Positions 1,311-17,704 of a stretch of DNA of 46,255 bases are shown in pieces (positions within the stretch are counted from its first letter, which is position 1; every line of letters starts with the position of its first letter). This DNA is from Elusimicrobiales bacterium (GTDB lineage Bacteria; Elusimicrobiota; Elusimicrobia; Elusimicrobiales; UBA9959). Both the position numbers and the translations under genes were made by a program. A model generated the notes under the pieces. That model did not search any database. It saw only the letters and a program-made list of their open reading frames with translations, and had not been told where the DNA came from. The DNA lies in NCBI GenBank assembly GCA_023701245.1, contig JAMPXK010000015.1:1-46255 (forward strand), given 5' to 3'.

Positions 1311-2561
1311 CTACTTGAGCAGCGAAAGATATTTCTTAAGGGCATCGACGAAACAGGCCGTGTCGGCCGGGGTATTGTAGGCGAAAAAGGAAAGGCGGAT
1401 GGTCTCGCGGTAGCCTGAGGCCAGGCACGCCAGGTCCGCGCAGTGGCGGCCGGTACGCACGGCGATGAAGCGCCCTTTCAGCTGGTGGTTGAGGAACAGG
1501 TTGAAGTCCGGCACTGAAAACCCTTTCTTCTCCGGCGCCAGCGAGATCAGCGAGCCTTCCAGCAGGTCTTCGCGTCGGCCCAGCACCTTGATCCCTTTCA
1601 CTTCCGCCAGCGCCTTCATCGCATCCTCCACCAGCCCGGAGACGTGCGCGCGGATATTGTCGTAGCCGCATTTCTCGAACCGGGCAAGAGCGGCGGCGAG
1701 GCCCGCCAGCCCGGAGTAATTCTGCACGCCGGCCTCGAAGCCCTGGTAATTCCCCAGATATTTCACCGTGTACCTGCCGCCCGAGACCGAAACGTCCTCC
1801 ACCGTGCCGCCGCCCACCCGCCACGGGCGGAGCCTTCCCAGCAGCGCGCGTTTCACGTAAAGAGCTCCGGTGCAGTAAGGCGCGCCCAGCTTGTGGCCGG
1901 AGAAAGCGCAGGCGTCCGCGCCGTAGAGCGCCGCGCCGCCGCCGTGCGTGGGAGCGTACTGCGCGTCGTCGGAGAAAAGGAAAGCCCCGGCCTTATGCGC
2001 CAGGTCCGCGGCGCGCGCCACGTCCTCGCGCCCGCCGAAGATATTGGAGGCGTGGGTGAAGCAGACCAGCGCGGTACGCCGGCCTATCAGGCGCCCCAGG
2101 GCCTCCATGTCGGGCTTCAGGCCCTTCAGCGGGGCGACTTTCAGCTTTATCCTGCCAGCCGCGGCCAGCCGCTCGAAAGGCAGGAACACGGCGTTATGCT
2201 CCAGCGGGGAAAGCACCACCTCGTTGCGCGCGGGCGTGAAAGGAAAAGAGTTGGCCAGCAGGTTGGCGGCGTCGGTCACGCCGGCCGTGAAAATTATCTC
2301 CTCGGGGGACTCCGCCCCCATGAAAGCGGCCACCCTGGCGCGGGCGGCGTAGAATTCCTCTTCCATGGCGGAGGCCAGCGCGTGGAAGGACCGCTTGCCG
2401 CCGCAGCCGCCCAGCCCCAGCAGGTGCCGGCGCTGCGCCTCGGCGGCGCAGCTCAGCTTCAGCACGGTACAGGCGCTGTCGAGATACACCAGGCGTTTGC
2501 CCCCGAAGCGCGCGCCCAGCGCGGGGAATTCTTTTTTCAAGGCCGAAATTTTTTCGTTCAT
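1311..2561 (-). CDS. Aminotransferase class V, cysteine desulfurase (SufS-like)
   Basis: This 416-residue PLP enzyme has the class V fold. The PLP lysine is in FSGHKLGAPYCTG, and a Cys-containing RTGRHCADLA segment near residue 375 corresponds to the RxGxHCA active-site cysteine loop of group II (SufS/CsdA) desulfurases. The likely reaction is removal of sulfur from cysteine to give a protein persulfide and alanine. The start codon overlaps the stop of the upstream radical SAM gene (ATGA), so the two are translationally coupled. That pairing suggests a dedicated sulfur or Fe-S donor for the radical SAM enzyme, or joint action on one substrate; both are inferences. No SufE, SufU or scaffold gene lies nearby, which leaves a role in general Fe-S assembly unsupported. 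An isopenicillin-epimerase-like activity is a less likely alternative because the active-site Cys loop is present. Confidence 0.85.
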   Translation of the reverse strand: MNEKISALKKEFPALGARFGGKRLVYLDSACTVLKLSCAAEAQRRHLLGLGGCGGKRSFHALASAMEEEFYAARARVAAFMGAESPEEIIFTAGVTDAANLLANSFPFTPARNEVVLSPLEHNAVFLPFERLAAAGRIKLKVAPLKGLKPDMEALGRLIGRRTALVCFTHASNIFGGREDVARAADLAHKAGAFLFSDDAQYAPTHGGGAALYGADACAFSGHKLGAPYCTGALYVKRALLGRLRPWRVGGGTVEDVSVSGGRYTVKYLGNYQGFEAGVQNYSGLAGLAAALARFEKCGYDNIRAHVSGLVEDAMKALAEVKGIKVLGRREDLLEGSLISLAPEKKGFSVPDFNLFLNHQLKGRFIAVRTGRHCADLACLASGYRETIRLSFFAYNTPADTACFVDALKKYLSLLK

Positions 2562-3403
2562 AGGTCGCCGTGCACGGCTATATAGTCTTTCCTGGGACCC
2601 GGGCAGAGTTCACGGAACCGGCAGCCGCGGCAGGCCGGGACCTGCTCTTTCTCCTCGAGGTGAGGGCCGGGCGCCCCGCTGCGCATCTTCGCCATATCCA
2701 CGTTGAGCCGGGAAAACCCGCCCAGGAAGCAGGGCGGGATATGGTCCACTTCGCAGTGCAGGCCGTTCTTCTCGCAGATGAACAGCGCGCGTTCCAGGTA
2801 AGGCTTCACCTGCGCGTAGCGCGGCAGGAACACGCTGCCTTCGGCCCGGCCTATGCCTTTGATGTAGCTGAACTGCACCCAGGCCGCCCCCTTGAGGTTC
2901 TTGACCGCGAAAGCCGCGAAGTCCGGGAGTTCCCGGTAGTTAAGCGAACTTACCACGTGCGTCAGGCGCACCCTGGCGCCGGACTTTATCAGGCGGTTCA
3001 CCCCGGCCAGGCGTTTTTTGAAGGCGCCTTTCACCCTGGTTATCTTCAGGTCCAGCCCGGCCGAGGCGGCCGGGAAATTCACGTTGAAGTACCCGTCCGC
3101 CGCGTTGAGGGCTTTTATTATCTTAGCCAGGTTTTCGGAGCGCATGCCGCAGGCGGCTATGGCGTTGGTCTGCAGTTCGGCCGTCCTGCCCAGCTTTTTC
3201 ACGGCGGCCAGCAGGGCGCAGAGCCCTGCCGCGGGCGCCAGCAGCGGCTCCCCTCCGGAGAGCTGCACCAGCCCTGGCGGCATGGCCGCGATCTCCTTGA
3301 GCCAGTCCTTGAGCGACGCCCGCTCGTCCGCGCCGCCCTCTTCAGGGTAGGAGCAGAACACGCAGCGCTGGTTGCATTTCCTGAAAAGGTGTATTAAGGC
3401 CAT
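2558..3403 (-). CDS. Radical SAM enzyme with C-terminal Cys cluster (unknown substrate)
   Basis: This 281-residue protein begins almost directly with the radical SAM cluster motif CNQRCVFC (Cys10, Cys14, Cys17), followed by LSGGEPL, the SAM-binding GGE motif. The C terminus carries CRGCRFRELCPGP and then a Tyr/His-Gly tail. The same tail pattern (C-x2-C-x4-6-C-x-G...Y...G) closes the four other small radical SAM proteins in this window, so they form one subfamily. Such C-terminal cysteines usually bind an auxiliary Fe-S cluster or a structural metal. The gene is coupled to the cysteine-desulfurase-like gene downstream. The start at 3403 has no clear Shine-Dalgarno, but starting eight residues before the first Cys fits this family. 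The reaction cannot be assigned; peptide or cofactor modification is the general expectation. Confidence 0.8.
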   Translation of the reverse strand: MALIHLFRKCNQRCVFCSYPEEGGADERASLKDWLKEIAAMPPGLVQLSGGEPLLAPAAGLCALLAAVKKLGRTAELQTNAIAACGMRSENLAKIIKALNAADGYFNVNFPAASAGLDLKITRVKGAFKKRLAGVNRLIKSGARVRLTHVVSSLNYRELPDFAAFAVKNLKGAAWVQFSYIKGIGRAEGSVFLPRYAQVKPYLERALFICEKNGLHCEVDHIPPCFLGGFSRLNVDMAKMRSGAPGPHLEEKEQVPACRGCRFRELCPGPRKDYIAVHGDL

Positions 3404-3437
3404 TTAGCTGTAGTCGGCGTCCCGCGCAAGTAAAAAG

Positions 3438-3466: not shown

Positions 3467-3518
3467 AACAATGCTTGCGCGGGCGCCGCAAGCGCGGAAG
3501 GCGGGCGCCCGTGTCTCT

Positions 3519-6625: not shown

Positions 6626-6632
6626 GCCGGAC

Positions 6633-7832
6633 CTAAAGCAGCTTTTTTATTTCGGTATAAGGCCTGGCGAGGGTCCAGCGGTAGGAGCCGCGTTCGAAGG
6701 CGCTTTTCACGAGCCCCTTGGCGGTCAGGCTGGCCGCCGCCGTAAGCACGGCGTTGCCGTCGGAGCAATCCCGGCAGAGGACTATCTGGCGCGACAGCGC
6801 CAGGACGTCGCGGGTAGCGGCGCCGGGTTTGCGGCGAAGTATCTCCACCATGCAGCGTTCGTTATCTGAAAGGTAAACCCGCTTCGCGGGCCCGGCCGGC
6901 CTGGCCGCGGCGCCTTTTTTTACCGGCACAAAACCCCGCCAGCCGAAACGTTTTATATAGTGCGTGTCGGCGCCGCGGCATTTGCCGGCCAGGGCGCAGC
7001 GCCGGCACGGCGGGCCTTTTACTTTGGCGGCGGCGGCGTTGGCGTCCAGGTCCGTGCGGCCGCCTGCCGGGTCGGTCACCACGGTATTGAAGAGGTCCAG
7101 GCCTATGGCGAGTTTTTCCCGTCCTTTCAAAAAGCAGGGCGGCGTGTTAAGGAAAAGTATCTCGCCCGGCAGCCCGGAGGCCTCCATCACGTCCACCGCC
7201 TCGTTGAAATACGGCTCGCAGTCCGACAGGCGCACGCCCAGCTTTTTGCAGTTTTCGGCCATGGCGCCTATGTAGACGGGGTAGATGACCACGAAATTGG
7301 TGATGCCGCGGGCCAGGTAGAATTTTATTATCTCCGGCAGGCGGGTATAGTTGCGCCGGTTGACCAGGATATTGGTGCCCAGCCGGATCTTGAGCCGCCG
7401 CAGGTTGGCCAGGCCGGCCAGCGCCTTCCTGAGCGCGCCAGGAACCCCCACCAGCGCGTCGTGCTCGGCGGCGGAATCCGTAGTGAAGGAAAATTTGCAG
7501 AAAGTGAGTCCGGCCTTTACCAGCGCCCGGCAGAACGCGGGGTCGGCCAGCTTGATGCCGTTGGTCTGCACCCGGATGAACCGGAAGCCCACCGACTTGC
7601 CCAGGGCTATCACCTTGAGTATATCCGGCCGTATCAGGGGCTCCCCGCCAGTCAGCCCCAGGCGGCGGTAGCCGTCCTTGTAGGCCCCGTAAATATTGCG
7701 GGCTATCGCGTCGAAAGGCGCGTTAAGCGACTTGTCGAAATCGCCCTGCGAGCAGAACCGGCAGCGGGCGTTGCAGTTGTAGTTGAGGATCAGCTCGTAA
7801 CAGCGGCCGGTGCCGTCCTTCTCTTTTTTCAT
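6633..7832 (-). CDS. Radical SAM enzyme with C-terminal winged-helix-like domain
   Basis: This 399-residue protein is the last gene of the Hxs-like operon. The cluster motif is CNARCRFC (Cys20, Cys24, Cys27), followed by LTGGEPL. The subfamily's C-terminal Cys set is CRRCALAGKCRG near residues 278-290. Unlike its relatives it continues for about 90 more residues, from YLSDNERCMVEIL onward, in a pattern of short helices ending in two strands (GLVKSAFERGSYRWTL). That pattern resembles a winged-helix domain, as used for DNA binding or, as an RRE-like fold, for leader-peptide binding. The ATG overlaps the stop of the preceding radical SAM gene. The placement suggests it modifies the same substrate as the rest of the operon or regulates it; the actual chemistry cannot be read from sequence. 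Confidence 0.75.
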   Translation of the reverse strand: MKKEKDGTGRCYELILNYNCNARCRFCSQGDFDKSLNAPFDAIARNIYGAYKDGYRRLGLTGGEPLIRPDILKVIALGKSVGFRFIRVQTNGIKLADPAFCRALVKAGLTFCKFSFTTDSAAEHDALVGVPGALRKALAGLANLRRLKIRLGTNILVNRRNYTRLPEIIKFYLARGITNFVVIYPVYIGAMAENCKKLGVRLSDCEPYFNEAVDVMEASGLPGEILFLNTPPCFLKGREKLAIGLDLFNTVVTDPAGGRTDLDANAAAAKVKGPPCRRCALAGKCRGADTHYIKRFGWRGFVPVKKGAAARPAGPAKRVYLSDNERCMVEILRRKPGAATRDVLALSRQIVLCRDCSDGNAVLTAAASLTAKGLVKSAFERGSYRWTLARPYTEIKKLL

Positions 7833-8755
7833 TTGACAGCCTTCAGTTCGGAGTCGCCGTAGTGCTTCAGATATTCAACCCAGATGCCCTCGCACTGGGC
7901 AAAAAGCCCGCAGCCGCGGCAGCGGGCCGTCTTGCGGCGCCCCACCACCGCGCGGGACCCGATGGCGTCCGCGTTCTTAAAATCCGGCGCCCAGTGTTCG
8001 GTCAGGAACAGTTCCCGTTCGTTGGTCTCGCTGATCTGGTCCAGGCAGCCGCGGAAATGGCAGAGCGGCACGTAGCGCGCCTTCCACTGCCCCAGCCCGG
8101 CCGCCCGGCCCAGCGCCAGCGCGCGCCGCATCTGCGGCGCCGCCCTGGAAATGCGCGGCACCAGCGCCTTGAAATTGTTGCGCGCCCCGCCGTAGTTGGG
8201 GTCCACGAAGATGTACTCCACGTTGGCTACGCGGTTCTTTATGTAGAACTCCGCCAGGCGCGGCAGGGCGGCCAGGTTGCTCTTCACCACCGTGGTGTTG
8301 CCGCCTATCGCGCCGAAGCCCAGCGCGCGCAGGTTGCGCAGGCCTTTCTTCAGCTGGACGAAGCTGCCGGGAGAACAGGTAAGCGCGTCGTGGACGGCCG
8401 CGTCGGGGCCGTGCACCGAGAAGATGACGGAATCTATCCCGGAGGCCACGATCCTGGCCGCCGCCGCAGGGTCCGCGAACACACGGCCGTTGGTGGCGCA
8501 GGTCACCTGCGGGATGCCCAGTTTCTTGGCGGCGGCCACCAGCCTGTCGAAGTCCGGGCGGATGGTGGCCTCGCCGCCGATGATCTCCAGGATCTCGGCG
8601 CCCTTGTTCCTGGCTTTCAGGATCTCCTGGAGCAGCTGGGCGGTGGTCTTTTCCGGCAGGGCGCGCTTGTCCGCGTCTATGCAGAACACGCAGTTGTTGT
8701 TGCAGGCATAGCCCGTGAAGAGCACCACCTTGAGCATTTTCCCGTCGGTTCTCAT
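7829..8755 (-). CDS. Radical SAM enzyme of the Hxs-like operon
   Basis: This 308-residue radical SAM protein has the cluster motif CNNNCVFC (Cys18, Cys22, Cys25), an IIGGEATIRPDF segment in place of the usual GGEP, and a CATNGR strand. The C-terminal tail is CRGCGLFAQCEG followed by Y-x3-YG and an ELKAV end. That tail closely matches the HxsC-like protein two genes upstream (CRGCRARRGCLG...YKAFGDGEL), so the two are probably paralogues that arose within this gene cluster. The gene is coupled by ATGA overlaps to the A24 peptidase gene before it and the larger radical SAM gene after it. The 'EAT' variant of the GGE motif is also seen in other radical SAM families and need not mean loss of activity. 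Function is unknown beyond probable peptide or protein modification. Confidence 0.8.
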   Translation of the reverse strand: MRTDGKMLKVVLFTGYACNNNCVFCIDADKRALPEKTTAQLLQEILKARNKGAEILEIIGGEATIRPDFDRLVAAAKKLGIPQVTCATNGRVFADPAAAARIVASGIDSVIFSVHGPDAAVHDALTCSPGSFVQLKKGLRNLRALGFGAIGGNTTVVKSNLAALPRLAEFYIKNRVANVEYIFVDPNYGGARNNFKALVPRISRAAPQMRRALALGRAAGLGQWKARYVPLCHFRGCLDQISETNERELFLTEHWAPDFKNADAIGSRAVVGRRKTARCRGCGLFAQCEGIWVEYLKHYGDSELKAVK

Positions 8756-9909
8756 TTGAAGAAGGTCACCAGGCCGCGGTCAAGCAGCAGCGTCAGCGCC
8801 GCGCCGGCGAAGATCCAGAGCGCGAAAGGCTTGCCTTTTACCGTTTCTATCTTGGGGTCCTGCACCGGCAGCTTGGCCAGCCAGTTTTGCAGCAGCCCCA
8901 CCTGCTCCTCCGTCAGCCCGTCCTTGAAACAGTCGTCGAAAGCGCCTTCGAAAACCGGGTTCTCCTTGAGCGTGCGGGCCGCCTTGGCCGAAAGGATCAT
9001 GCCGGGCTCCAGCTCGCGCGGCCCCACGTAAACCGTGTCTTTCTTCTCCATCAGGTGCTCCAGCATGAACCGGCCGAAGAAAAGCAGCAGACTGAACTTG
9101 AACACGTTCACGAAGGCCGCCAGCAGCAGGGCGGCCAGCCGGTCGTAGAAGAAAAAGTAGCCGGCGAAAAAGTAGAGCGCGTAGCAGGCCGTGCTGGCGT
9201 AAAGCCATTTTTTGCTGCCGAAGACGCCGCCGATCTTGTCCCACAGGAAGAACAGGAAGAAGTAGATGATGTCCGTGCGGCCTATGAACCGCCCCAGGAA
9301 ATAGCGGGTCTCCATGTTGAGCACCTGCTGCAGCAGGAACAGGAAGGTCATGTTGGAGAGGTAGGCCGCTATGCGCCAGCCGCCGCGCGCCCCTTCTCCG
9401 GCCAGCGACGCAAAACGGGCCTTCACGTCGACCCAGAGCTCCGCGAAAAAATCCGCCGGGCTCGCCTGGTAGAACCCGGAAGCGATATAGGAACCGAACG
9501 CCACCAGCGCGGCCGCCACGAAGGTGTTCACCAGCAGGCCGACAAAAAGATAGTTGGGGAAATTCCGGATATACGGATCTATGACCGGCAGCCAGGCGGC
9601 GCAGAGCATGAAAAATTTGGCGTCTCCGGCGGGCCAGATGCCGGTGTACCAGAGGATGATGCCGGCCAGCGCGGCCCAGAAGAAGTGCAGCGCCCACAGG
9701 GCGTAAAAATTCCAGTTCAGGAAACTGGTCACCTGCCCGGCGTAGCCGAGCAGCGAATTGACGGCCAGCAGGCCCAGCGCCAGCAGCAGCAGCCGGAACC
9801 CGAAGACTATCCTGGAATTGGGGATCTTGCGGGAGGCCATGTCCACGCTTACCACGGACACGCCCCACCAGGAGAAGGCGGCCAGGTAAAGCAGGTGCAG
9901 GTATTTCAT
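8752..9909 (-). CDS. A24 (prepilin-peptidase family) membrane aspartic protease
   Basis: This 385-residue polytopic membrane protein carries both signature aspartates of the A24 family: Asp23 in SVDMASRKIPN (the D-x6-P block) and Asp96 in WPAGDAKFFM (the GxGD block, here AGD). Members cleave the leader of type IV prepilins or related proteins at the inner face of the membrane. It has several more membrane segments after the active site, then a soluble region (about 280-360, EPGMILSAKA...) and a final transmembrane helix, so it is longer than a minimal prepilin peptidase. It has no N-terminal Cys-rich methyltransferase domain. No pilin, secretion ATPase or other type IV pilus gene is in the window. 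It lies between radical SAM genes with four-base overlaps on both sides, which implies that it processes the product of this operon rather than ordinary pilins. Confidence 0.75.
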   Translation of the reverse strand: MKYLHLLYLAAFSWWGVSVVSVDMASRKIPNSRIVFGFRLLLLALGLLAVNSLLGYAGQVTSFLNWNFYALWALHFFWAALAGIILWYTGIWPAGDAKFFMLCAAWLPVIDPYIRNFPNYLFVGLLVNTFVAAALVAFGSYIASGFYQASPADFFAELWVDVKARFASLAGEGARGGWRIAAYLSNMTFLFLLQQVLNMETRYFLGRFIGRTDIIYFFLFFLWDKIGGVFGSKKWLYASTACYALYFFAGYFFFYDRLAALLLAAFVNVFKFSLLLFFGRFMLEHLMEKKDTVYVGPRELEPGMILSAKAARTLKENPVFEGAFDDCFKDGLTEEQVGLLQNWLAKLPVQDPKIETVKGKPFALWIFAGAALTLLLDRGLVTFFK

Positions 9910-10793
9910 AGCCGGCGCAGCTCCCCGTCGCCGAAAGCCTTATAGTATTCCCCCATCAGCCCCAGGCAGCCGCGGCGGGCGCGGCAGCCGCGGCACTTGG
10001 CCGTGTAGACGCGGTCTTCCGGAGGAAGGGTGACCCAGCAGAGGCGGCGCAGTTCGGGCCGCACCAGGCAGCGCGGGAAGTGGTAGAGCCTGAAATTATG
10101 GAACCGCTTTATCAGCGGCAGCGCGGAGCCCAGGGCGGCGGCGGATTCCTTGAGGCGCAGGGCCAGGCGCCGGTGGTTGGCCAGCGACATGCCTTCTATC
10201 TCGTAATGGATGGCGGTAACGCTGTAGCGGCGGGTATCCGGGAATTTCGCCAGCAGGAAAGAAAGCAGGGGGCCCAGTTTTTTGATATTGAGGCGGTGCA
10301 GCACCAGCCGCACCTGCACCTCCAGCGGTCCGGCGCCGGCCAGCAGGTTCTCCAGCCCGGCCAGGGTCTGGCCGAAGGCGCCGCGCACTCCGGCGATCTT
10401 GTCGTGCAGGGCGGGCGTTGGCGCGTGCACCGGCACCGCCACGGCGAAGGGCGGCGCGGCCACCTTGAGGAACCGGCCGGTGAATTCCTTGTCGGCGAAG
10501 CGGCGGCCGTTGGACAGCAGGGTTATCCCCGCTCCCGGCAGGCGGCGGCGGAAATACGCCAGCAGCCGGAAAAAATCCGGGTGGATGGTGGGTTCGCCGC
10601 CGGTAAGGCTGACGAAGTCCTTCTTGTCGTCGTTCTTAAGGTAGACCTTGCCCCGGCCCTTCAGCCAGCGCTCCAGTTTTTCCACCTGCGGGCGCAGGCC
10701 GTAAAGAGCGGAATCGTTGAGGGAGAAACCGCCCTCGTTGGTGCACATCACGCACTTGTTGTTGCACTTGTTCCAGAAAGCTATATCGGGCAT
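9906..10793 (-). CDS. hxsC: HxsC-like radical SAM maturase
   Basis: From the ATG at 10793 the protein has 295 residues. An upstream in-frame extension to 10940 would overlap the HxsD-like gene and has no homologous sequence, so I rejected it. The radical SAM motif is CNNKCVMC (Cys10, Cys14, Cys17). Then follow LTGGEPTIHPDF, LLSNGRRFAD, a VPVHAPTPALHDKIAG segment, EVQVRLVLHRLN and the YHFPRCLV region. These blocks match, in order, the pattern I know for the HxsC maturase of His-Xaa-Ser systems. It ends with the Cys-rich tail CRGCRARRGCLG. Its position beside HxsD- and HxsB-like genes supports the assignment. In classical systems HxsB and HxsC together modify the repeat protein HxsA; the modification itself is not known to me. 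It is coupled by ATGA overlap to the A24 peptidase. Confidence 0.72.
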   Translation of the reverse strand: MPDIAFWNKCNNKCVMCTNEGGFSLNDSALYGLRPQVEKLERWLKGRGKVYLKNDDKKDFVSLTGGEPTIHPDFFRLLAYFRRRLPGAGITLLSNGRRFADKEFTGRFLKVAAPPFAVAVPVHAPTPALHDKIAGVRGAFGQTLAGLENLLAGAGPLEVQVRLVLHRLNIKKLGPLLSFLLAKFPDTRRYSVTAIHYEIEGMSLANHRRLALRLKESAAALGSALPLIKRFHNFRLYHFPRCLVRPELRRLCWVTLPPEDRVYTAKCRGCRARRGCLGLMGEYYKAFGDGELRRL

Positions 10794-10840
10794 AGTTCTG
10801 CGGCCCGCCGTAAAGATCGGCGCGCGCCGCGCTGGGCGGG

Positions 10841-11143
10841 TCAGGCCTTCTTCTTGGTGCCGCCGGCGGCGGAAAGCAGGGCCTTGGTGGCTATCATGCC
10901 GGCCGCCTTGGAGTTCTGTTTCGCCAGGTCCAGGCGGCACTGCTGGTTAAGTACCTCGTTCATGTAATCCCCCGGGTGGAACCCGGGAGCTTCGCCGCAA
11001 AAAGAAACGTTAAAAACGCCTTTGCCCGCTTTTATGGAGATCTCCGCCCTGTCGGAGTAGACGAAAGCCGCCAGCTGCAGGGCTTCGGCCGAATAAACGG
11101 CGGCGTCCGCAACCAGGCCGCCCTTGTTCTGTTTCTTGGTCAT
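10841..11143 (-). CDS. hxsD: HxsD-like protein, short form
   Basis: This small 100-residue protein starts at the ATG that overlaps the stop of the HxsB gene (ATGA). It has the HxsD pattern: an N-terminal strand with YSAEALQLAAFVYSDRA, a two-strand segment (EISIKAGKGVFNVSF) and a C-terminal helix EVLNQQCRLDLAKQNS followed by GMIATKALLSA. The helix corresponds to the LLNDYxLRE-like signature of the family and the last part to its conserved short C-terminal helix. HxsD proteins are small partners of the HxsB and HxsC radical SAM enzymes; a role in substrate recognition is plausible by analogy with other peptide-modification systems. A second, diverged copy is the gene two positions upstream. The first conserved-looking residues come shortly after the chosen start, which supports it over the longer upstream frame. 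Confidence 0.65.
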   Translation of the reverse strand: MTKKQNKGGLVADAAVYSAEALQLAAFVYSDRAEISIKAGKGVFNVSFCGEAPGFHPGDYMNEVLNQQCRLDLAKQNSKAAGMIATKALLSAAGGTKKKA

Positions 11144-12591
11144 TTTCCCACCCAGTTCTTCAGGATCGTCTCGTTGCCGGGTTTCTTCAGCAGCGCGAAA
11201 AGCGCGCCGAAGATGCCCTTGAACAGGCCGCAGCGGTCGTTGGTGGCCATATCGCCCCACAGCGAACCCTGGGCCTCGTAGTTGTAAACGGGACAGACGC
11301 CGCAGTACGGCTTATAGGCGCAGCGGGCGCAGTCGGGCTGGGACTCCAGGTTGGAGGACAGCACGCAGGCTCGCGCGGCGCCGCTGGTGAGCACCTTGCG
11401 GTAGGTGTCCTTGCGGACATTGCCTATCTTGAAAGCGTCGTCGCCTTCCCAGCCCACCATGCGCCCTTCGTCGCAGGTATAGAGGTCGCCGTTGTAGTTG
11501 TAAGCGATCTGGCCTATGGCGGCGCCGCAGGGGCAGCGCGCGTCCAGGTAGCCGGGGTCGCGGGCGTTCACTATCTTGTCCAGCATCATCGCGGCCATCT
11601 TCTCCCGGATCACCACGCCCCGGCGGTTGAGCTTCAGGATATAGTCCAGGCTCTTAAGGTAAAAGTCCGCGAAGTCCTTTGCCTCGTAGCCGATCTGGCC
11701 CCAGAGGTTCTTGGCGTAGCCTATGGGCGCCAGCGGCCGCACGAACACGTCCTCGAGCCCGGCCTTGACGTATTCGTCTATGATCTCCTTGTGGCGGCCC
11801 AGCGAATAGCGCGACACGGTAAGCAGCGCACTGGGCTTGAAGACCCGGTATTCCGGCACCTGGCGCGCGTGGCGCGCCTGGAAGAACTTGAGCCACTTCA
11901 CGGTGGCGGCGTGGGAGTTGCCGCCGCAGAAAACCCTGTTGCGGTTGTGCAGGTCGGCCGGGCCGTCGAGCGAAGTGCAGATGGACACTTCCTGCTCCAT
12001 CAGGAACTGCGCCTTTTCCTCCGTCATCAGGCTGAAATTGGAGACCAGCGCCAGGCTGAGGTTCTTGCCGGTCTTTTTGGCCTTGCCGCGCGCGTGCAGC
12101 ACGGCGGCCTTCAGCGCTTCCCAGTTCAGCAGCGGTTCGCCGCCCTGGAACTCTATGGTGATGCCCGGGTTGGGCGACTGGAAGGCGAAGTCCACGCACT
12201 TTTTGGCGGTAGCCGCGGACATGTCCGTGTCCCTGGCGCCCGGCCCGGCCGCGGCCGACTGGCAGTACAGGCACTTGTGGTTGCAGCGCAGCGTCAGCAC
12301 CAGGATATGCAGGCCGGGGCCGGAATTGAGGAAAGCGTTCTTGGAGCGCCACTTGGCGGCTAGCCCGTCGAAGTCCAGCCTGTCGCGGATGAAGCCTTTG
12401 TCGGCCAGCGCGGCGTAGCGGGGGTGCTTGCCCCCCAGCCGGCCAGCCAGCAGCAGGTCGAAATCCTTTTTCTTGAGCCAGGCGTACTGCCCGAAGTCGT
12501 TGGTCACCAGGCAACTGGCGCCATCGCGGCGCCAGAGCAGCTGCGGGGGCCCCGCCGGCTCAGTTTTTTTTGCGGCTTTTTTTAGCGCCAT
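11140..12591 (-). CDS. hxsB: HxsB-like radical SAM/SPASM maturase
   Basis: This 483-residue protein has the length and layout of HxsB. An N-terminal region of about 90 residues (a possible peptide-binding part) precedes the cluster motif CNHKCLYC (Cys103, Cys107, Cys110). Then come EFQGGEPLLNW, the SLDGPADLHNRNR segment, a HKEIIDEYVKAGLEDVFVRPLAPIGYA-type block, the NYNGDLYTCDEGRM motif and the SPASM cysteines (DCARCAYKPYCGVCPVYNY, later DRCGLF). The end, ILKNWV, also matches the family. SPASM domains hold auxiliary 4Fe-4S clusters used in peptide modification. The gene overlaps the preceding HxsD-like gene by 32 bases in another frame, and its stop overlaps the next HxsD-like start. Two A-runs (seven and eight bases) sit in the overlap. 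This is the most confident member of the Hxs assignment. Confidence 0.8.
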   Translation of the reverse strand: MALKKAAKKTEPAGPPQLLWRRDGASCLVTNDFGQYAWLKKKDFDLLLAGRLGGKHPRYAALADKGFIRDRLDFDGLAAKWRSKNAFLNSGPGLHILVLTLRCNHKCLYCQSAAAGPGARDTDMSAATAKKCVDFAFQSPNPGITIEFQGGEPLLNWEALKAAVLHARGKAKKTGKNLSLALVSNFSLMTEEKAQFLMEQEVSICTSLDGPADLHNRNRVFCGGNSHAATVKWLKFFQARHARQVPEYRVFKPSALLTVSRYSLGRHKEIIDEYVKAGLEDVFVRPLAPIGYAKNLWGQIGYEAKDFADFYLKSLDYILKLNRRGVVIREKMAAMMLDKIVNARDPGYLDARCPCGAAIGQIAYNYNGDLYTCDEGRMVGWEGDDAFKIGNVRKDTYRKVLTSGAARACVLSSNLESQPDCARCAYKPYCGVCPVYNYEAQGSLWGDMATNDRCGLFKGIFGALFALLKKPGNETILKNWVGK

Positions 12592-13042
12592 ATTTGTCTT
12601 CCCATGTCCTGGTTATGCCGAGGGGGTCCGAGGCGGCGCCGGAGGCGGCCTCCTGCTTGATCTCGCTCTCCACCTGCGCTATCAGGGCGTCCAACTCTTT
12701 CTCCTGTTCGGGGGTAAGGCCGGAATCGTCCTGCCGGGGAGGCGGCGCGGCCTGGGCGGAAAGCGCCTTCAGGATCATGAAGTCGCGCAGTTCGCGGTTG
12801 GCGGCGTAAACCGACGCGCGCAGCGCTTCGTCGGCCAGCTCGGCCCGGAAGGCCGCGGCTATTTTGGCCCCGGGCAGCCTGCCCGTGGGTTCGAACTCCG
12901 CCACGGCCGTGTCGCGGCCGGCGGTCCGGATAAAGACGCGCGCCGCGCAGCTCACGGCGTGCGCGGCGTAACGTACGGTCTCTATGGGATATTTTTTCAG
13001 ACTGACTGAAACTTTTGTCTTGGCTGCCGGCTTCTTGTTCAA
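12560..13042 (-). CDS. hxsD: HxsD-like protein with C-terminal extension
   Basis: This 160-residue protein uses a TTG start with a strong GGAGG site just upstream. Its first 95 residues repeat the HxsD layout: VSVSLKKYPIETVRYAAHAVS, a two-strand segment (ARVFIRT..DTAVAEFE), and the helix IAAAFRAELADEALRASVYAANRELRDFMILKALSA written here in parts (LADEALRA; NRELRDFMI), which fits the LLNDYxLRE-like signature. From about residue 100 there is a unique acidic and then basic extension: a predicted helix (TPEQEKELDALIAQVESE), a short linker, and a TWEDKYGAKKSRKKN end. The extension is absent from the other HxsD-like copy. It probably arose by duplication followed by specialisation, so each copy may serve one of the two maturases. 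It lies 16 bases after the candidate substrate gene and overlaps hxsB by 32 bases. Confidence 0.6.
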   Translation of the reverse strand: MNKKPAAKTKVSVSLKKYPIETVRYAAHAVSCAARVFIRTAGRDTAVAEFEPTGRLPGAKIAAAFRAELADEALRASVYAANRELRDFMILKALSAQAAPPPRQDDSGLTPEQEKELDALIAQVESEIKQEAASGAASDPLGITRTWEDKYGAKKSRKKN

Positions 13043-13058
13043 ATTCCCTCCCCGAAGA

Positions 13059-13784
13059 TCAGAAATTCCTTACGTAACAGCAGAGCATGGTGCCGGAGCA
13101 GCCCTGCTCATAGTGCGGCACCCAGCTCCCGCCGGATTCCAGAGTGCCGCCCAAAAAGAGGAGACCGGAGTAGCAGCGCCCGGTCCCATACTGCCCCATG
13201 ACCCTGCGCCCGCCGGGGCAGGACGAGTTGCCGCCGCCGAAGCCCACTTCCACGCAAAGGCCGCGCAGCCAGCCGTTATTGTCTATCTGCACGTCGCCGG
13301 ACACATGCAGCCGGGCTTGCGGATTGGTGTTGCCCATGCCTACGAACCCGTTACCTTTGTTGATAGAAAGCGCGTTCCAGCCGGCCCCGTTGGTCCAGAA
13401 ACCCATAGTGTTTCCCGCGCTGCCGACAAAACCGCTGGTGTCGCTGCCCAGCCAGACGCCGCCGTTGCCGCCGCCGTCTCCTGTCATAATACGGCCGTTG
13501 ACGCGCAGGTCCACCGCGACATTGCCGGTGCCCTGCACGTGAAGTTTGCTGGTAGCCGTGACATTACCCACCGCCACGTTGCCGGTATCCCGGGCCAGGA
13601 AAGTATTGCCGGTAGTGAGGATGCTGACGTAGCCGCCGTAAGGCGCCGGGTAATAAGTGGTCAGCGTCAGCGTCTCCGACCCCAGCGGGCCCGGACGCCA
13701 GCACAGGAAGAGCAGGGCCAGCGCCATAAGCGCCCTGGTCCGCGTCATCCTGACCTGCAAAGTGACTATATTCTCGTTCTGCAT
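13059..13784 (-). CDS. Secreted Cys/Gly-rich tail-fibre-like protein, candidate Hxs substrate
   Basis: This 241-residue first gene of the Hxs-like operon has a GAGGGGG site upstream of the ATG at 13784. A signal peptide is likely at about residues 13-36 (TRALMALALLFLCW). The mature part begins with ETLTLTTYYPAPYG, a segment I associate with exported proteins of Elusimicrobiota and Omnitrophota. Low-complexity beta repeats rich in GN, VAVG and SKLHV/ARLHV resemble phage tail fibres and adhesins. The last 65 residues are Gly-rich and hold six cysteines, including a terminal CCYVRNF. There is no His-Xaa-Ser repeat, so this is not a classical HxsA. Being first in the operon and exported, it is the best candidate for the substrate of the downstream maturases; this is inference. 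Alternatively it may be a surface protein that merely shares the promoter. Confidence 0.7.
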   Translation of the reverse strand: MQNENIVTLQVRMTRTRALMALALLFLCWRPGPLGSETLTLTTYYPAPYGGYVSILTTGNTFLARDTGNVAVGNVTATSKLHVQGTGNVAVDLRVNGRIMTGDGGGNGGVWLGSDTSGFVGSAGNTMGFWTNGAGWNALSINKGNGFVGMGNTNPQARLHVSGDVQIDNNGWLRGLCVEVGFGGGNSSCPGGRRVMGQYGTGRCYSGLLFLGGTLESGGSWVPHYEQGCSGTMLCCYVRNF

Positions 13785-13858
13785 AAAACCCCCTCGCCCT
13801 GGCTCCCGGGCGGGAAAAACGGCAAAAGAATACGCTGCCGGGGAGGCCCGGCATGCAT

Positions 13859-13898
13859 ATTATAGTCTAATATATAAATCCGCGTATTTCAATACGCG
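13859..13898 (-). promoter_or_regulatory. Inverted repeat and AT-rich putative promoter ahead of the Hxs-like operon
   Basis: Between barstar and the operon lies a perfect eight-base inverted repeat with a two-base loop (CGCGTATT, GA, AATACGCG; 13881-13898), followed on the minus strand by an AT-rich tract containing TATAAT (13864-13859). No good -35 box lies at the right distance. The repeat could be a weak terminator for barnase-barstar, or an operator over the promoter of the Hxs-like operon. Confidence 0.4.
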
Positions 13899-13907
13899 AA
13901 CGGGTTT

Positions 13908-14297
13908 TTAAAGGAACACCACTTTGAAGGGGAGTTTGAGTTTTTCCGACAGGAATTGGCCGGCTTCGGAGGCGACATCCAGGAAATCCTCTTTATCTTT
14001 AGGGCTGGCCGCCAGGAACCGGCCGGAATCTCGTATCAGCAGGGCGTACCCGCCTGCCGGGTTGAACTCCGGCAGCGAACGCAGGCAGTCCAGCAGGGCG
14101 TCCCAGTTGCGGCCGAAATAGGCGGGGAACCTGAAAGCCGCGGCCAGCGCGGTCATCAGGGCGGCCTTGTCGGACACGGCGCCTCCGTCCAGGGCGGCGG
14201 TAAAATAAAGCGGCGGAGGGAACAGTCCGGCTATTCCCTCCGCCGTAAGACCGCCGGCCCTCAGGTCCAGGAAAATTCCTTCCCCGGGGGCGGTCAT
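13908..14297 (-). CDS. Barstar-family ribonuclease inhibitor
   Basis: This 129-residue protein carries the barstar signature FPAYFGRNWDALLDCL (residues 57-72). Tyr60, Asp66 and Asp70 align with Tyr29, Asp35 and Asp39 of barstar, the residues that plug the barnase active site. There are about 30 more residues at the N terminus than in the classical 89-residue inhibitor. It is cytoplasmic, with no signal peptide, and starts four bases after the stop of the barnase-type ribonuclease gene, so it almost certainly protects the cell from that enzyme before export. Many genomes carry lone barstar-fold genes; finding one paired with a visible ribonuclease partner gives a firm function here. It ends 10 bases before an inverted repeat that may act as a terminator. 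Confidence 0.88.
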   Translation of the reverse strand: MTAPGEGIFLDLRAGGLTAEGIAGLFPPPLYFTAALDGGAVSDKAALMTALAAAFRFPAYFGRNWDALLDCLRSLPEFNPAGGYALLIRDSGRFLAASPKDKEDFLDVASEAGQFLSEKLKLPFKVVFL

Positions 14298-14301
14298 GGG
14301 A

Positions 14302-14883
14302 TCAGTACACCACTTTCAGCAGTATGAAGTGCGCGTAATGGTCGGGCGTATAGTACACGTTCTGGCCGCCGCCTATGATGACGCGCTCGGAACCGCGGGC
14401 GCTCAGGTCGGGGGCGACATCGTAGGTAACGTCGCCTATCTTAACCTTGTGAGGAGCGTCGCCGGTGAGCAGCGTGTATTCCTTGTAGAAGCCGGCGGGC
14501 TGGGCGGGCAGCTTGCCCTCCTTGTTCTTGAACGTGGTACCGTCCTGGGAGTAAGGCAGGGGCTTTACGTTGTAGATGTCGGAGACCAGCTTCATGATCG
14601 CCTGGATGCGTTTCTGGTCGTAAACCGTGGGGGTGAAGTCTTTGCCGGGCGCGGGGGCCGGGCCGGGCTTGGCAACGGCCTTCAGCTCGTCCGCCACCGG
14701 CGCCTTGACTTCGGGGGCGGCGGGCAGTTCCACCAGGTTGGCGGGAACGGCGCCCCGCAGTTCGGTCAGGGCCGGGATCTCGGCCGCGGCCGTAAACGCC
14801 GGCGCGGCGAAGAGGGAAGCGGATTGGAAAGAGAGGATGAGTACGGCTACGGCCTTCAACCACAGGTTCTTGTTCTTAAGCAT
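14302..14883 (-). CDS. Secreted barnase-type guanyl-preferring ribonuclease
   Basis: From the ATG at 14883, which has an AAGGA site seven bases upstream, the protein has 193 residues. A signal peptide (about 1-27, ending SASLFAA) is followed by an Ala/Pro-rich linker to about residue 85 and then a microbial ribonuclease domain. The family blocks are clear: FKNKEGKLP, GFYKEYT, RGSERVIIGGG and YYTPDHYAHF. Glu135, Arg167 and His182 align with the barnase catalytic residues Glu73, Arg87 and His102. The enzyme should cleave single-stranded RNA outside the cytoplasm, either as a toxin against neighbours or for scavenging. The barstar gene follows directly. The long linker may hold the enzyme in the envelope or carry a release site; that part is inference. 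A 14-base perfect AT palindrome (14928-14941) lies in the upstream region. Confidence 0.85.
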   Translation of the reverse strand: MLKNKNLWLKAVAVLILSFQSASLFAAPAFTAAAEIPALTELRGAVPANLVELPAAPEVKAPVADELKAVAKPGPAPAPGKDFTPTVYDQKRIQAIMKLVSDIYNVKPLPYSQDGTTFKNKEGKLPAQPAGFYKEYTLLTGDAPHKVKIGDVTYDVAPDLSARGSERVIIGGGQNVYYTPDHYAHFILLKVVY

Positions 14884-15027
14884 GCTGGTTCCTTTGGGCT
14901 CCGGGTTAAACTCGTACACCGCCTATATTTTAAATTTAAAACCCCATGTTGCCGAGGGCCCAAGGGCCCAGAAGGGCCTGGGCCTAAAGCCCTACGGCGC
15001 CCACCGGGGAAATGATAAAATAAAAAC
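14884..15027. other. Divergent intergenic region with palindromes
   Basis: This region separates the ribonuclease gene (minus) from the radical SAM/U32 operon (plus). It holds a perfect 14-base AT palindrome (14928-14941), probably within the ribonuclease promoter, and a GC hairpin (arms GGCCCAG 14965-14971 and CTGGGCC 14978-14984) inside a run of repeated GGGCC motifs. A TAAAAT at about 15017 could be the -10 box of the plus-strand operon, but no -35 box fits. Confidence 0.4.
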
Positions 15028-15945
15028 GTGAAAAGGGAAAAAAAGGCCGCCTGGATAAGCGAGCAGCTCTGCGTGCAGGCGGCCGGCACCTGCAACGTCT
15101 ACTGCGCCTACTGCCAGAACCCACCCGACGGCAAAATGCCGCCGCTGGCGCGCGCGCTGGCGGTCATCAAGAAGCGCGGCATAAAGTCCGTCAGCCTGGA
15201 AGGCGGCGGGGACCCGGCCGCCAACCCGCTTTTCCCCGCGATCGTGGCCCGGCTGCGCGGCGCGGGAGTAAAGAACTTCATGCTTTCCACCAACGCCGTG
15301 GCCCTGGCCGACCAGGCGCTGTGCAGGGCCGCAGTGCGTGACATGGACTTTTTCACGGTCAACTTCCCCTCCCACCTGCCGGAGCTCTACGCCAAAGCCA
15401 CCCGCAGCGTTAAATTCCCGCAGGCCCTGGCCGGCCTCCGGAACCTGAAAGCCTGCGGCGCGGAAAACCGCATCCGCCTGTTCCATATCATTTCGGCTTT
15501 CAATTACAAGGCCCTGCCCGGCTTCGCCGCCTGGACCGCCGCCCATTTCCCCGGTGTCGCTTTCGTGAACCTCACTTTCGTGCGCAACGCCGGACGCGTC
15601 AACGACGATCCCGCCCTGGTGCCGCGCTACCGGCAGGCCGCCCCTTTCGTAAAGATCGCGCTGGCGAAGCTGAAACTGGCAGGCATAAAGGCCGTGGTCC
15701 AGAATTTCCCGCTCTGCCAGCTGGAGAATTTCGAGGGTTTTTCTTTCGAATTCCAGCGCTGGCGCCGGGGAGACAAAGTGCTGGAGGCCGGGGTCAAGAC
15801 CGCGGCACCCTGCGCAGAGTGCCGCCGCTGCGCGCTTAAGCCGGCCTGCTGCGGCGCCCGGGCGGATTATGCGCGCATTTACGGCACGGCCGAACTGAAA
15901 ACCTCGAACAGATCCCCGGCGGGGATCCGGCCGGAGGGCTTTTGA
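15028..15945 (+). CDS. Radical SAM enzyme linked to U32-type proteins
   Basis: This 305-residue protein starts at GTG. The cluster motif is CNVYCAYC (Cys22, Cys26, Cys29). The usual GGEP is written EGGGDPAANPLF, as in several divergent families. The C terminus has CAECRRCALKPACCG followed by Y-x3-YG and AELK, the same tail as the radical SAM proteins at 2.6-10.8 kb, though this gene is on the other strand and in another operon. Its stop overlaps the start of a U32 gene (TGATG), and a second U32-like gene follows, so the three form an operon. Known U32 pairs such as UbiU/UbiV are Fe-S hydroxylases, so a joint modification pathway is plausible, but the substrate is unknown. The Shine-Dalgarno is weak. 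Confidence 0.78.
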   Translation: MKREKKAAWISEQLCVQAAGTCNVYCAYCQNPPDGKMPPLARALAVIKKRGIKSVSLEGGGDPAANPLFPAIVARLRGAGVKNFMLSTNAVALADQALCRAAVRDMDFFTVNFPSHLPELYAKATRSVKFPQALAGLRNLKACGAENRIRLFHIISAFNYKALPGFAAWTAAHFPGVAFVNLTFVRNAGRVNDDPALVPRYRQAAPFVKIALAKLKLAGIKAVVQNFPLCQLENFEGFSFEFQRWRRGDKVLEAGVKTAAPCAECRRCALKPACCGARADYARIYGTAELKTSNRSPAGIRPEGF

Positions 15946-16901
15946 TGAAGATCGTCTCCTGCTTCTCCCGCGCCGACGAGATAGCTCCCCTGGCCGAGGC
16001 CGGCGCCGACGAACTCTATTGCGCCGTGGCGGATATCCCCTCCTACGGCTTCGGCGTGCTGCGCGGCGGCCTGGCCACCGCGGTAACCAGGGCGCACCGC
16101 CTCGGCAAAAAAGTCAGCCTGGCCGTGAATTCCATGCGCCTGACCTATTCAAGGGCGCAGATGCTGCAGTTCGCCGGCCGCCTGCGGCAGGCCGCGGAGC
16201 ACGGCGTTGACGCCTTCATAGTGGCCAGCCCGGCCGTGTTCGAACTCTTCAGGGAACTCAAAGAAAAGGTCCCGGCGCCGGTGCATCTCAGCTCCGTACA
16301 GCCCTGCTTCAATTCCGGAACGGCGCGCTACTTCATCCGCCTGGGCATCTCGCGGCTCATCCTGCCCAGCCAGGTGGCGCCCGCCGAGGCCGCGGGCATC
16401 CTGCGCGAATGCCGCGCCGCAGGGGTGGAGACGGAGATCTTCGACTACCGCTTTTTCGGCTGCGTCTACGTGAACGGGCGCTGCAACCTGCACGACCCGG
16501 TGTTTCACACGTTCACTTCCGGCAAGGAAGGGGACGCCATGTGCCGCTGCGGCGCCGGCACGGCGGGACGGCTGGAAGTAAGACCCGCGGACGTCGCCCC
16601 CGCCCGGGCCGCGCTGGCCCCGGCGCTGGCCCGGCGGCTTTACACCCGCATGACCTGCGGCGGCCCGCCCCGCCTGGCCAACGCGGCGGCCTTTTTCGAT
16701 TTCTTCCGCGGGGGCGTGGATTTCCTCAAATACGGCACGCGCCGCGACCCGTCCGGCGTGAAAGTGCGCAAGGTGCGCGAACTCCGGGCCCTGCTGGACC
16801 TGGCGGAGGCCCTCAAAGCTTCGCTGCCGGCGGCGGCGGCCAGGGCGGAATTCATCCGGCGCATGTCGGCCTGGCGCGGGCTGGAAGGGGGCGGGCGATG
16901 A
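15945..16901 (+). CDS. U32-family protein (UbiU/YhbU-like)
   Basis: I start this 318-residue protein at the ATG at 15945, which lies six bases after GGAGGG; a TTG immediately before it is the alternative. The N-terminal TIM-barrel pattern of peptidase family U32 is visible: a PLAEAGADELYCAV strand-helix, VSLAVNS, DAFIVASPA and HLSSVQPCFN. Cysteines in FGCVYVNGRCNLHD and DAMCRCG fit the 4Fe-4S ligand set of U32 proteins such as UbiU and RlhA. Proven members act as oxygen-independent hydroxylases of quinone precursors or rRNA, and some are collagenase-like proteases. It overlaps both neighbours by one to four bases. The partner U32-like gene downstream suggests a heterodimer like UbiU-UbiV, but neither is close enough by eye to claim a ubiquinone role, and no other ubi gene is nearby. 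Confidence 0.78.
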   Translation: MKIVSCFSRADEIAPLAEAGADELYCAVADIPSYGFGVLRGGLATAVTRAHRLGKKVSLAVNSMRLTYSRAQMLQFAGRLRQAAEHGVDAFIVASPAVFELFRELKEKVPAPVHLSSVQPCFNSGTARYFIRLGISRLILPSQVAPAEAAGILRECRAAGVETEIFDYRFFGCVYVNGRCNLHDPVFHTFTSGKEGDAMCRCGAGTAGRLEVRPADVAPARAALAPALARRLYTRMTCGGPPRLANAAAFFDFFRGGVDFLKYGTRRDPSGVKVRKVRELRALLDLAEALKASLPAAAARAEFIRRMSAWRGLEGGGR

Positions 16902-17704
16902 CGGCCAAAGGCATCAAGACCGGCACGCTGACCCCGGCCGAACTGAAGGCCGCCGGAGCGCTGGGCGGCGCTTTGGAAAAGTTCGAGTGGTTCTACGTCG
17001 GAGCGGAGTTCTGCGAGAACCTGCTGCCGGCCCCGGAGGCGCTGGCGCGCACCGCGGCCTTCTTCCTGGAGAAAGGCAAAAAGGTCTGCGTGCTGACGCC
17101 GCCCGTGAGCGAAGCGGGGCTCGGGCGCCTGGCCAGGACTTTCCGCCTGCTTCGCCGGCTGGGCGCCGGCCTGGAACTTACCGTGAACGATTTCGGCGCG
17201 CTGGCGCTGGCCGGGGAAACGGGGCTGCGCGCCAAGGTGAACGCCGGGCGCCTGCTTTACGACAACCTGTTCAGGCTCCGCCGGCATACCCTGCAGCTGG
17301 TCAACGCGCCGGCGCTGCGGTTCTTCACCCGGCAGGGCGTGGACCGCTTCGAGATCTCCACTACCGGGGTCCGCCTGCGCACCAATTTCAGCAGCGCGGC
17401 GCGGCTGGGCTTCAAACCGGCGGACCTGAACCTGACGCTGTACTACCCGTACCTCAACATGACCACCACGCGCACCTGCCTGCTGGGCATGCCCGACGTG
17501 CCGCCGCAGGAGGCGGCCACGGGCATCCGCTGCCGCCGGGAGTGCGGCGCGGCCTCCTTCGAGGTGAAGCACCCGCTCATAAACGAGCGGCTGCTGGTGA
17601 GCGGCAACACGGTCTTTATGCGCTTCCCGGACCAGTTCTACTCTTCCGAAAAAAGCCTTGCCGCCATGCGCGTAGACCGCCTGGTCTACTGTCCCAGGCC
17701 TTAA
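16898..17704 (+). CDS. U32-like partner protein
   Basis: This protein has 268 residues from the ATG at 16898, which overlaps the stop of the upstream gene and has GGAAGGGG ahead of it. A much longer open frame extends upstream through that gene, but only the part from this ATG is sensible protein. The pattern is that of a smaller U32-type barrel: KFEWFYVGAEFCENLL, VCVLTPPVSE, LELTVNDFGAL, AKVNAGRLLYDN and DRFEISTTG. The C-terminal cysteines (TRTCLLG, IRCRRECG, LVYCP) could bind an Fe-S cluster. The length and the reduced N terminus resemble the UbiV or TrhP-like partner of a U32 pair. It is the last gene of the operon. Function is inferred only from the pairing. Confidence 0.65.
   Translation: MTAKGIKTGTLTPAELKAAGALGGALEKFEWFYVGAEFCENLLPAPEALARTAAFFLEKGKKVCVLTPPVSEAGLGRLARTFRLLRRLGAGLELTVNDFGALALAGETGLRAKVNAGRLLYDNLFRLRRHTLQLVNAPALRFFTRQGVDRFEISTTGVRLRTNFSSAARLGFKPADLNLTLYYPYLNMTTTRTCLLGMPDVPPQEAATGIRCRRECGAASFEVKHPLINERLLVSGNTVFMRFPDQFYSSEKSLAAMRVDRLVYCPRP

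What the first reader, a model, noticed from the sequence alone, without database searches (positions are those of the whole stretch)
6633..13784. Divergent Hxs-type peptide-maturation operon with an added protease and two extra radical SAM enzymes
Eight minus-strand genes, most linked by ATGA overlaps, encode a secreted protein, two HxsD-like proteins, HxsB-like and HxsC-like radical SAM enzymes, an A24 membrane protease and two more radical SAM enzymes. Classical His-Xaa-Ser systems, as I know them, consist of HxsA, HxsB, HxsC and HxsD. The expanded set, the second HxsD, the protease and the lack of any His-Xaa-Ser repeat suggest a different substrate and a processing and export step. Assignment of HxsB is strong, HxsC and HxsD moderate; the system-level role is inference.
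Basis: partly seen in the sequence, partly recalled or inferred. Interest (0 to 1): 0.85.

Follow-up and report, generated by a model that had tools for sequence, protein, structure and literature searches.

The report
Expanded His-Xaa-Ser maturation operon, Elusimicrobiota
This is a real, conserved gene cluster in Elusimicrobiota bacteria that appears to chemically modify a histidine-glycine-serine repeat protein encoded elsewhere in the same genome, and it carries a pilin-type membrane protease not seen in the few classical versions of this system examined.

Summary
HxsB is a curated-grade match (479 bits, cut-off 370); HxsC and both HxsD-like proteins are real but divergent homologues, below their cut-offs. 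The operon is larger than reported: a further rSAM enzyme and a SufS-like enzyme (1311-3403), and a divergent rSAM plus U32 pair (15028-17704), probably belong with it. A relative without detected Hxs lacks all of these at this site but keeps the neighbouring RNase-barstar pair. The inference 'no His-Xaa-Ser repeat, so a different substrate' fails: the genome encodes an HxsA4-type (His-Gly-Ser)n protein on another contig beside a second HxsB, and in 14 of 25 D1-B-D2 stretches such a protein lies close by; the other 11 genomes have it further away. In 340 genomes of the phylum HxsB, HxsA4 and the A24 protease travel together (82 with both HxsB and A24, 4 with A24 only, 10 with HxsB only). Best reading: a split, expanded HxsA4 system. 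The precursor may be cut by the A24 protease after the Gly/Ala that follows S-E-E in its leader (57 of 57 leaders with the motif). That cut is inference; the acidic residue sits at +6, not the pilin +5.

The parts
11140..12591 (-). HxsB, radical SAM/SPASM maturase, class I (next to D1 and D2)
   Evidence: TIGR03978 479 bits > cut-off 370; CNHKCLYC motif; class placement in a quick tree
12560..13042 (-). D1, HxsD-like protein with a conserved C-terminal tail (TTG start)
   Evidence: TIGR03976 21.3 bits, below cut-off 50; 25 of 25 homologues match at E<=0.01
10841..11143 (-). D2, second HxsD-like protein
   Evidence: TIGR03976 33.3 bits, below cut-off 50; 20 of 25 homologues match at E<=0.01; AF2 model pLDDT 86.4
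9906..10793 (-). HxsC-like radical SAM enzyme
   Evidence: TIGR03977 151.5 bits, best hit but below cut-off 267.9; CNNKCVMC
8752..9909 (-). A24-type membrane aspartic protease, divergent subfamily
   Evidence: PF01478 20.6 bits in the window, homologues L125 28.1 and L141 33.5 above gathering score 26.5; D23 and D96 invariant in 20 of 20
7829..8755 (-). R1, radical SAM enzyme, HxsC4/HxsC-like
   Evidence: NF038332 132.1 bits, cut-off 500; CNNNCVFC
6633..7832 (-). R2, radical SAM enzyme, HxsC4/HxsC-like
   Evidence: NF038332 87.3 and TIGR03977 83.5 bits, below cut-offs; CNARCRFC
2558..3403 (-).
   Evidence: TIGR03977 78 bits, cut-off 267.9; R3/R4-type gene directly before SufS in 12 of 43 stretches
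1311..2561 (-). SufS/CsdA-like class V PLP enzyme
   Evidence: PF00266 238 bits; TIGR01979 252 bits, below cut-off 475; ATGA overlap with R4
13059..13784 (-). Sec, probably secreted protein with conserved N-terminal ETLTLTTYYPAPYGGY and C-terminal Cys residues
   Evidence: Alignment A5 of 22; Sec-D1 adjacent in 22 of 43 stretches; no Pfam or NCBIfam hit
15028..15945 (+). R3, divergently transcribed radical SAM enzyme, probable satellite of the module
   Evidence: PF04055 38.4 bits; absent from this site in G024
15945..16901 (+). U32a, peptidase-U32 family, probable satellite
   Evidence: PF01136 54.5 bits; UbiU model 49.8 bits, far below cut-off 440; absent from this site in G024
16898..17704 (+). 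U32b, partner gene of U32a, probable satellite
   Evidence: No Pfam or NCBIfam hit; U32a-U32b pairs recur in relatives
13908..14297 (-). Barstar-family protein: neighbour, judged NOT part of the module
   Evidence: PF01337 81.8 bits; kept in G024, where Hxs was not detected
14302..14883 (-). Barnase-family RNase with a signal-like N-terminus: neighbour, judged NOT part of the module
   Evidence: PF00545 46.5 bits; kept in G024

Best explanation
The operon is the maturation half of a split, expanded HxsA4-type His-Xaa-Ser system of Elusimicrobiota. HxsB, HxsC and the extra HxsC-like rSAM enzymes, helped by the HxsD-like proteins and the SufS-like enzyme, modify the (His-Gly-Ser)n tail of HxsA4 in the cytosol; HxsA4 is encoded in trans at G000:C59 with a second HxsB. 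The HxsA4 leader, basic + F-L-x-S-E-E-(G/A)-K + hydrophobic helix, serves for recognition and probably as the A24 cut site after Gly/Ala, as in pre-pilins, before or during export. Shown: gene content, conservation, co-occurrence, presence of HxsA4. Inferred: HxsA4 as the substrate, the chemistry, the cut, the location.
For: HxsA4 in the own genome over the cut-off. The 25 stretches (of 43 examined) with D1, B and D2 come from 25 genomes, each with an HxS-repeat protein: 14 in the fetched stretch, 11 further off, several of these on the same contig. In 340 phylum genomes: HxsB and HxsA4 83 both, 9 and 1 alone; HxsB and A24 82 both, 10 and 4 alone; HxsA4 and A24 77 both, 7 and 9 alone. Of 56 named A24 loci (some the same contigs as above), 54 hold an Rx-type rSAM gene, 46 HxsB and 38 HxsC in the fetched stretch. 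Leader: 54 Gly + 3 Ala after S/C-E-E in 57; prepilin peptidase cuts at Gly/Ala before the hydrophobic stretch (PMC3244431, passages). Four plasmid-borne classical HxS-repeat proteins lack this motif, and their annotated neighbourhoods list no A24. Another A24 gene, over the cut-off, sits at C94.
Against: Co-occurrence counts are not phylogenetically independent. The acid of pre-pilins at +5 is at +6 here (D in 45 of 57; E at +5 in 6), and the most hydrophobic stretch starts a median 6 residues after the site rather than at once. No Pfam pilin model hits 7 leaders. Seven HxsA4 genomes have no detected A24; in G143 the contig ends at HxsC, but in G023 (95% complete) other genes follow HxsC, and G153 (97%) shows none at its two Hxs loci. 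Nine A24 genomes lack a detected HxsA4. Only 7 of 20 close A24 homologues hit PF01478, the A24 model (pLDDT 76.9) had no PDB match at E<=0.001, and profile comparison with the C94 A24 protein failed (probability 1.2). FLxSEEG may be only a recognition motif. No chemistry is known.
Confidence: 0.6

Rival explanations
1. The FLxSEEG segment is only the leader recognition element for HxsB/HxsD, as in other rSAM-modified peptides. HxsA4 is exported by Sec/signal peptidase I, and the A24 protein cuts something else or has another role.
For: 57 of 60 repeat frames found by repeats alone carry [FY]-x-x-[SC]-E-E (the 3 others: one fragment, two apparent antisense frames), and the two Glu are invariant in 16 of 16 aligned HxsA, more than a prepilin site needs; canonical +5 acid absent; A-x-A-like segments follow the helix in many HxsA; G023 and G153 have HxsA4 without a detected A24.
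Against: Only Gly or Ala at the putative -1 position, which the search did not impose (57 of 57); 77 of 86 A24 genomes have HxsA4; G325, with a classical-type D-B-C locus, has neither HxsA4 nor A24 detected.
Confidence: 0.35
2. The local substrate is the YYPAPYG protein (Sec), as the reader's 'different substrate' would have it.
For: Sec directly precedes D1 in 22 of 43 stretches; the motif is near-invariant in 22 aligned proteins; YYP pattern and HxsB co-occur in 86 of 340 genomes.
Against: 20 of 106 genomes with the DNA pattern lack a detected HxsB, one of them with 13 matches (G233), and 6 of 92 HxsB genomes lack the pattern, though at least G009 has a one-letter variant of it. An HxS-repeat protein is in all 25 genomes with the D1-B-D2 stretch.
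Confidence: 0.15
3. HxsA4 is a scaffold for a cofactor or small metabolite (PQQ/mycofactocin style), so the final product is not a surface peptide.
For: Five rSAM enzymes besides HxsB at 2558-15945, plus SufS-like and U32 proteins; nitrogenase-like proteins beside related clusters in other families.
Against: The signal-like helix and long HGS repeats suggest export of a whole protein.
Confidence: 0.2
4. The region is a secreted toxin-immunity island: the RNase/barstar pair with Hxs as its modification or delivery machinery.
For: RNase-Bst adjacent in 18 and Bst-Sec in 15 of 43 stretches.
Against: G024 keeps the pair at the same site but has no detected HxsB or HxsA4; further RNase matches lie on other contigs, e.g. 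G000:C80.
Confidence: 0.05

Closest known systems
Classical His-Xaa-Ser system (hxsD-hxsB-hxsC with or without hxsA), e.g. Aeromonas salmonicida and Nostoc plasmid copies
   Same: HxsB equivalog, HxsC and HxsD homologues, His-x-Ser repeat protein
   Different: Two HxsDs, several HxsB paralogue classes across relatives (two copies in this genome), further HxsC-like rSAM enzymes, A24 protease, SufS-like enzyme, U32 pair; HxsA4 leader FLxSEE(G/A), absent from four classical repeat proteins
NCBIfam HxsA4 / HxsC4 type (NF038313, NF038332)
   Same: The genome's repeat protein is over the HxsA4 cut-off (67.8 vs 55); R1 and R2 hit HxsC4 best
   Different: R1/R2 are far below the HxsC4 cut-off (132 and 87 vs 500). 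I saw only the model names; none of the papers listed names HxsA4 in its title or shown abstract, and no search asked for HxsA4 itself
Type IV prepilin peptidase / TadV-Flp processing
   Same: A24 domain with both Asp motifs; Gly/Ala before the hydrophobic stretch of the candidate substrate
   Different: Acid at +6 not +5, helix starts later, long C-terminal half of unknown function, no pilus assembly gene among the module's annotated genes, no Pfam pilin match

Membership tests
His-Xaa-Ser (Hxs) system | HxsB equivalog (TIGR03978) | tested here: met
   479 bits vs 370; second copy 428.6 at C59
His-Xaa-Ser (Hxs) system | HxsC equivalog (TIGR03977) | tested here: not met
   151.5 vs 267.9; best hit along most of the protein, so a divergent homologue, not the equivalog
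His-Xaa-Ser (Hxs) system | HxsD equivalog (TIGR03976) | tested here: not met
   21.3 and 33.3 vs 50; homologous family-wide: 25 of 25 and 20 of 25 at E<=0.01
His-Xaa-Ser (Hxs) system | His-Xaa-Ser repeat protein in the genome | tested here: met
   HxsA4 67.8 vs 55 at G000:C59; none inside the window
His-Xaa-Ser (Hxs) system | HxsA is the rSAM substrate | not testable with these tools
   Needs mass spectrometry
HxsC4 | NF038332 cut-off | tested here: not met
   R1 132.1, R2 87.3, cut-off 500
Peptidase A24 | Two catalytic Asp motifs | tested here: met
   D23 and D96 (WPAGDAK) invariant in 20 of 20; in 22 distant copies the second motif is found in 20 and my pattern for the first in 18, two copies being fragments
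Peptidase A24 | Pfam gathering score | tested here: inconclusive
   Window 20.6 vs 26.5; 7 of 20 close homologues hit A24 at E<=1; of 10 distant copies 9 hit and 2 pass
Peptidase A24 | Fold or profile match | tested here: inconclusive
   Foldseek vs PDB: none at E<=0.001 for a model of pLDDT 76.9; hhalign to the own C94 A24 protein: probability 1.2
Prepilin-type substrate (HxsA4) | Gly or Ala at -1 | tested here: met
   54 G + 3 A of 57 distinct leaders; of 60 repeat frames 3 without the motif (one fragment, two apparent antisense) were set aside, and the four classical regions were not counted
Prepilin-type substrate (HxsA4) | Glu/Asp at +5 | tested here: not met
   E at +5 in 6 of 57; D at +6 in 45 of 57

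The most novel reading that the evidence does not exclude
HxsA4 is a pilin-like, radical-SAM-decorated His-Gly-Ser repeat protein whose leader is removed by a dedicated A24 prepilin-type peptidase: a post-translationally modified peptide matured by pilus-type processing and displayed on the envelope.
Probability: 0.35. Interest if true: 0.85.

Novelty: new variant of a known kind. Interest (0 to 1): 0.6.

Why it matters
In the papers listed I saw no product or function assigned to the Hxs system; PMC9062424 (passages) says only that HxsA-type peptides putatively rely on HxsB and HxsC for maturation. A conserved A24 protease that tracks HxsA4 across a phylum gives a directly testable maturation step, and the HxsB paralogue classes, extra rSAM enzymes, SufS-like and U32 proteins point to unusually elaborate chemistry on one simple repeat protein. 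In other Elusimicrobiota families related clusters sit beside nitrogenase-like proteins. A search for prepilin peptidase + RiPP + radical SAM gave no paper.

Tried and rejected
Rejected: (a) a different substrate because no HxS repeat is in the window (HxsA4 lies at C59); (b) RNase-barstar as a system component (kept in G024 without detected Hxs); (c) YYPAPYG protein as the obligate substrate (20 genomes with the pattern and without detected HxsB); (d) D2 as a known fold: Foldseek gave no PDB match at E<=0.001; (e) Flp-pilin membership of HxsA4: no Pfam hit to a pilin in 7 leaders; (f) viral spread: an HxsA alignment found only 2 weak loci in viral contigs, not followed up; (g) PDB sequence relatives of A24 and D2: none at E<=10; (h) that every HxsA4 genome without A24 is an assembly gap: G143 fits, G023 and G153 do not.

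Limits: the gene caller used for gene orders is home-made and misses small genes, so HxsA was counted by six-frame scan. HMM labels were built from the same families. In the leader count the F/Y-x-x-S/C-E-E part was imposed by the search, the next residue was not. HxsB tree: quick method, several long branches. The 2x2 tables were typed from the listings. Literature: searches are search listings; of PMC9062424, PMC12057145, PMC11423573 and PMC3244431 I saw passages. The Elusimicrobia nitrogenase-paralogue paper (ISME J 2020) is not held; I saw only its title in a reference list. The label 'PhoH-like' and the comparisons to PQQ/mycofactocin are recalled and were not tested.
Full report
OBSERVATION. 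The window is contig C62 of a 2.55-Mb, 96-contig genome. Its phylum is inferred: of 56 named loci found with the A24 alignment, 46 are titled as Elusimicrobia/Elusimicrobiota (or a group within), 8 only 'bacterium', one Omnitrophota (L141) and one 'uncultured bacterium' (L142). The eight minus-strand genes exist as stated. HxsB is a curated-grade match; HxsC, D1 and D2 are homologues below the equivalog cut-offs, with the HxsD assignment supported family-wide. The A24 assignment is sub-threshold in the window and weak in most close homologues; it rests on two more distant homologues over the gathering score and on the invariant Asp motifs. Structure and profile comparisons did not confirm it.

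EXTENT. Relatives show, in various combinations, the order Sec-D1-B-D2-(F11-HxsA4)-...-C-A24-R1-R2-R4-SufS. In the window, R4 and SufS (1311-3403) are separated from R2 by two plus-strand genes with GDSL-type hits below the gathering score (3438-6625). G024 (90% complete) has no HxsB at E<=1e-60, no HxsA4 and no YYP pattern. At the matching site its M20-peptidase-like gene (by eye the same N-terminus as the window's gene at 48-1238) is followed directly by barstar, RNase and the gene I label PhoH-like (L203). So the SufS-to-Sec block and the R3-U32a-U32b block are both absent there, while RNase-barstar stays. Loss is the simpler reading, since 35 of 37 genomes of that family in the sample have HxsB; the direction was not tested.

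THE MISSING HxsA. A six-frame scan finds no repeat protein in the window, but finds one at G000:C59 (L037:10525-10842, + strand) beside a second HxsB and a 362-aa protein with one N-terminal hydrophobic stretch (F11). It passes NF038313 HxsA4 (67.8 vs 55). The C59-type HxsBs (L037, L063, L065) form a clade next to the window class in a quick tree with several long branches. Of the 43 stretches examined, 25, from 25 genomes, hold D1, B and D2: 14 hold an HxS-repeat protein in the fetched stretch (for G036 the HxsA4 model match is below the cut-off), and the other 11 belong to genomes with an HxsA4 match further off, in several cases on the same contig.

CO-OCCURRENCE. In 340 phylum genomes: HxsB 92, A24 subfamily 86, HxsA4 84, YYP pattern 106. 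Both / first only / second only / neither: HxsB-A24 82/10/4/244; HxsB-HxsA4 83/9/1/247; HxsA4-A24 77/7/9/247; HxsB-YYP 86/6/20/228. These genomes are related, so the Fisher values overstate the evidence. Of the 7 genomes with HxsA4 and no A24 I looked at stretches of five: in G143 HxsC is the last gene on the contig (L211), so A24 may be off it; in G023 other genes, with no A24 motif, follow HxsC, and in G153 neither Hxs locus shows A24; the G208 and G222 stretches show none either.

A24 AND THE LEADER. Of 60 distinct six-frame stretches with HxS repeats, 57 carry [FY]-x-x-[SC]-E-E in front of a helix; the next residue, not imposed by the search, is Gly in 54 and Ala in 3. Prepilin peptidases cut at Gly or Ala before the hydrophobic stretch, usually with E/D at +5 (PMC3244431, passages). 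HxsA4 meets the first rule and not the second, and its helix starts later. Four plasmid-borne classical repeat proteins lack the motif. A second A24 gene, over the Pfam cut-off, exists at C94, so the operon's protease need not be the housekeeping one. An Omnitrophota genome with a related A24 locus (L141) also has an HxS-repeat protein with SEEG, below the HxsA4 cut-off (34.4 bits).

MECHANISM. Most likely HxsD/HxsB bind the leader, the rSAM enzymes act on the HGS repeats, and the A24 protease trims the leader on export. Only content, order and conservation are shown; the rest is inference. The Sec protein is a conserved neighbour with a strong N-terminal motif but a wider distribution than HxsB, so I treat it as a partner rather than the substrate.

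COMPARISON. Four classical plasmid regions carry hxsB with hxsC, three with an annotated hxsD and two with an annotated hxsA or hxsA2, and no annotated A24 (PLSDB gene tables are incomplete). This is a new variant of a known kind: two equivalog-level tests met (HxsB, HxsA4), two not met (HxsC, HxsD).

Noticed in passing
L131:4812-13483; also L130, L156, L165, L166, L167, L169, L170: Related rSAM (and mostly A24) clusters in other Elusimicrobiota families sit beside NifH-like proteins; in L131 a NifH (PF00142) protein, a NifH-nitrogenase component 1 fusion and a component 1 (PF00148) protein; in the others judged by a P-loop motif only.
   Followed up: partly
window 13908-14883: Barnase-family RNase with adjacent barstar; the pair stays at the site when Hxs is not detected (G024), and another RNase match lies at G000:C80.
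   Followed up: partly
window 15945-17704 and L037 (G000:C59): U32a/U32b pairs recur beside Hxs rSAM clusters; by recall of UbiU/TrhP, possible oxygen-independent hydroxylation of the product.
   Followed up: no
window 12560-13042: D1 homologues keep a C-terminal tail with near-invariant D-P, I and W-E, of unknown role.
   Followed up: no
G000:C65:23751-23770 (L038): A second YYPAPYG protein with no Hxs gene labelled in the fetched 18 kb; G233 has 13 pattern matches and no detected HxsB.
   Followed up: partly
window 3438-6625: Two plus-strand GDSL-type genes (one with TPRs) lie between R2 and R4; no gene matching them was labelled in L037-L078.
   Followed up: no
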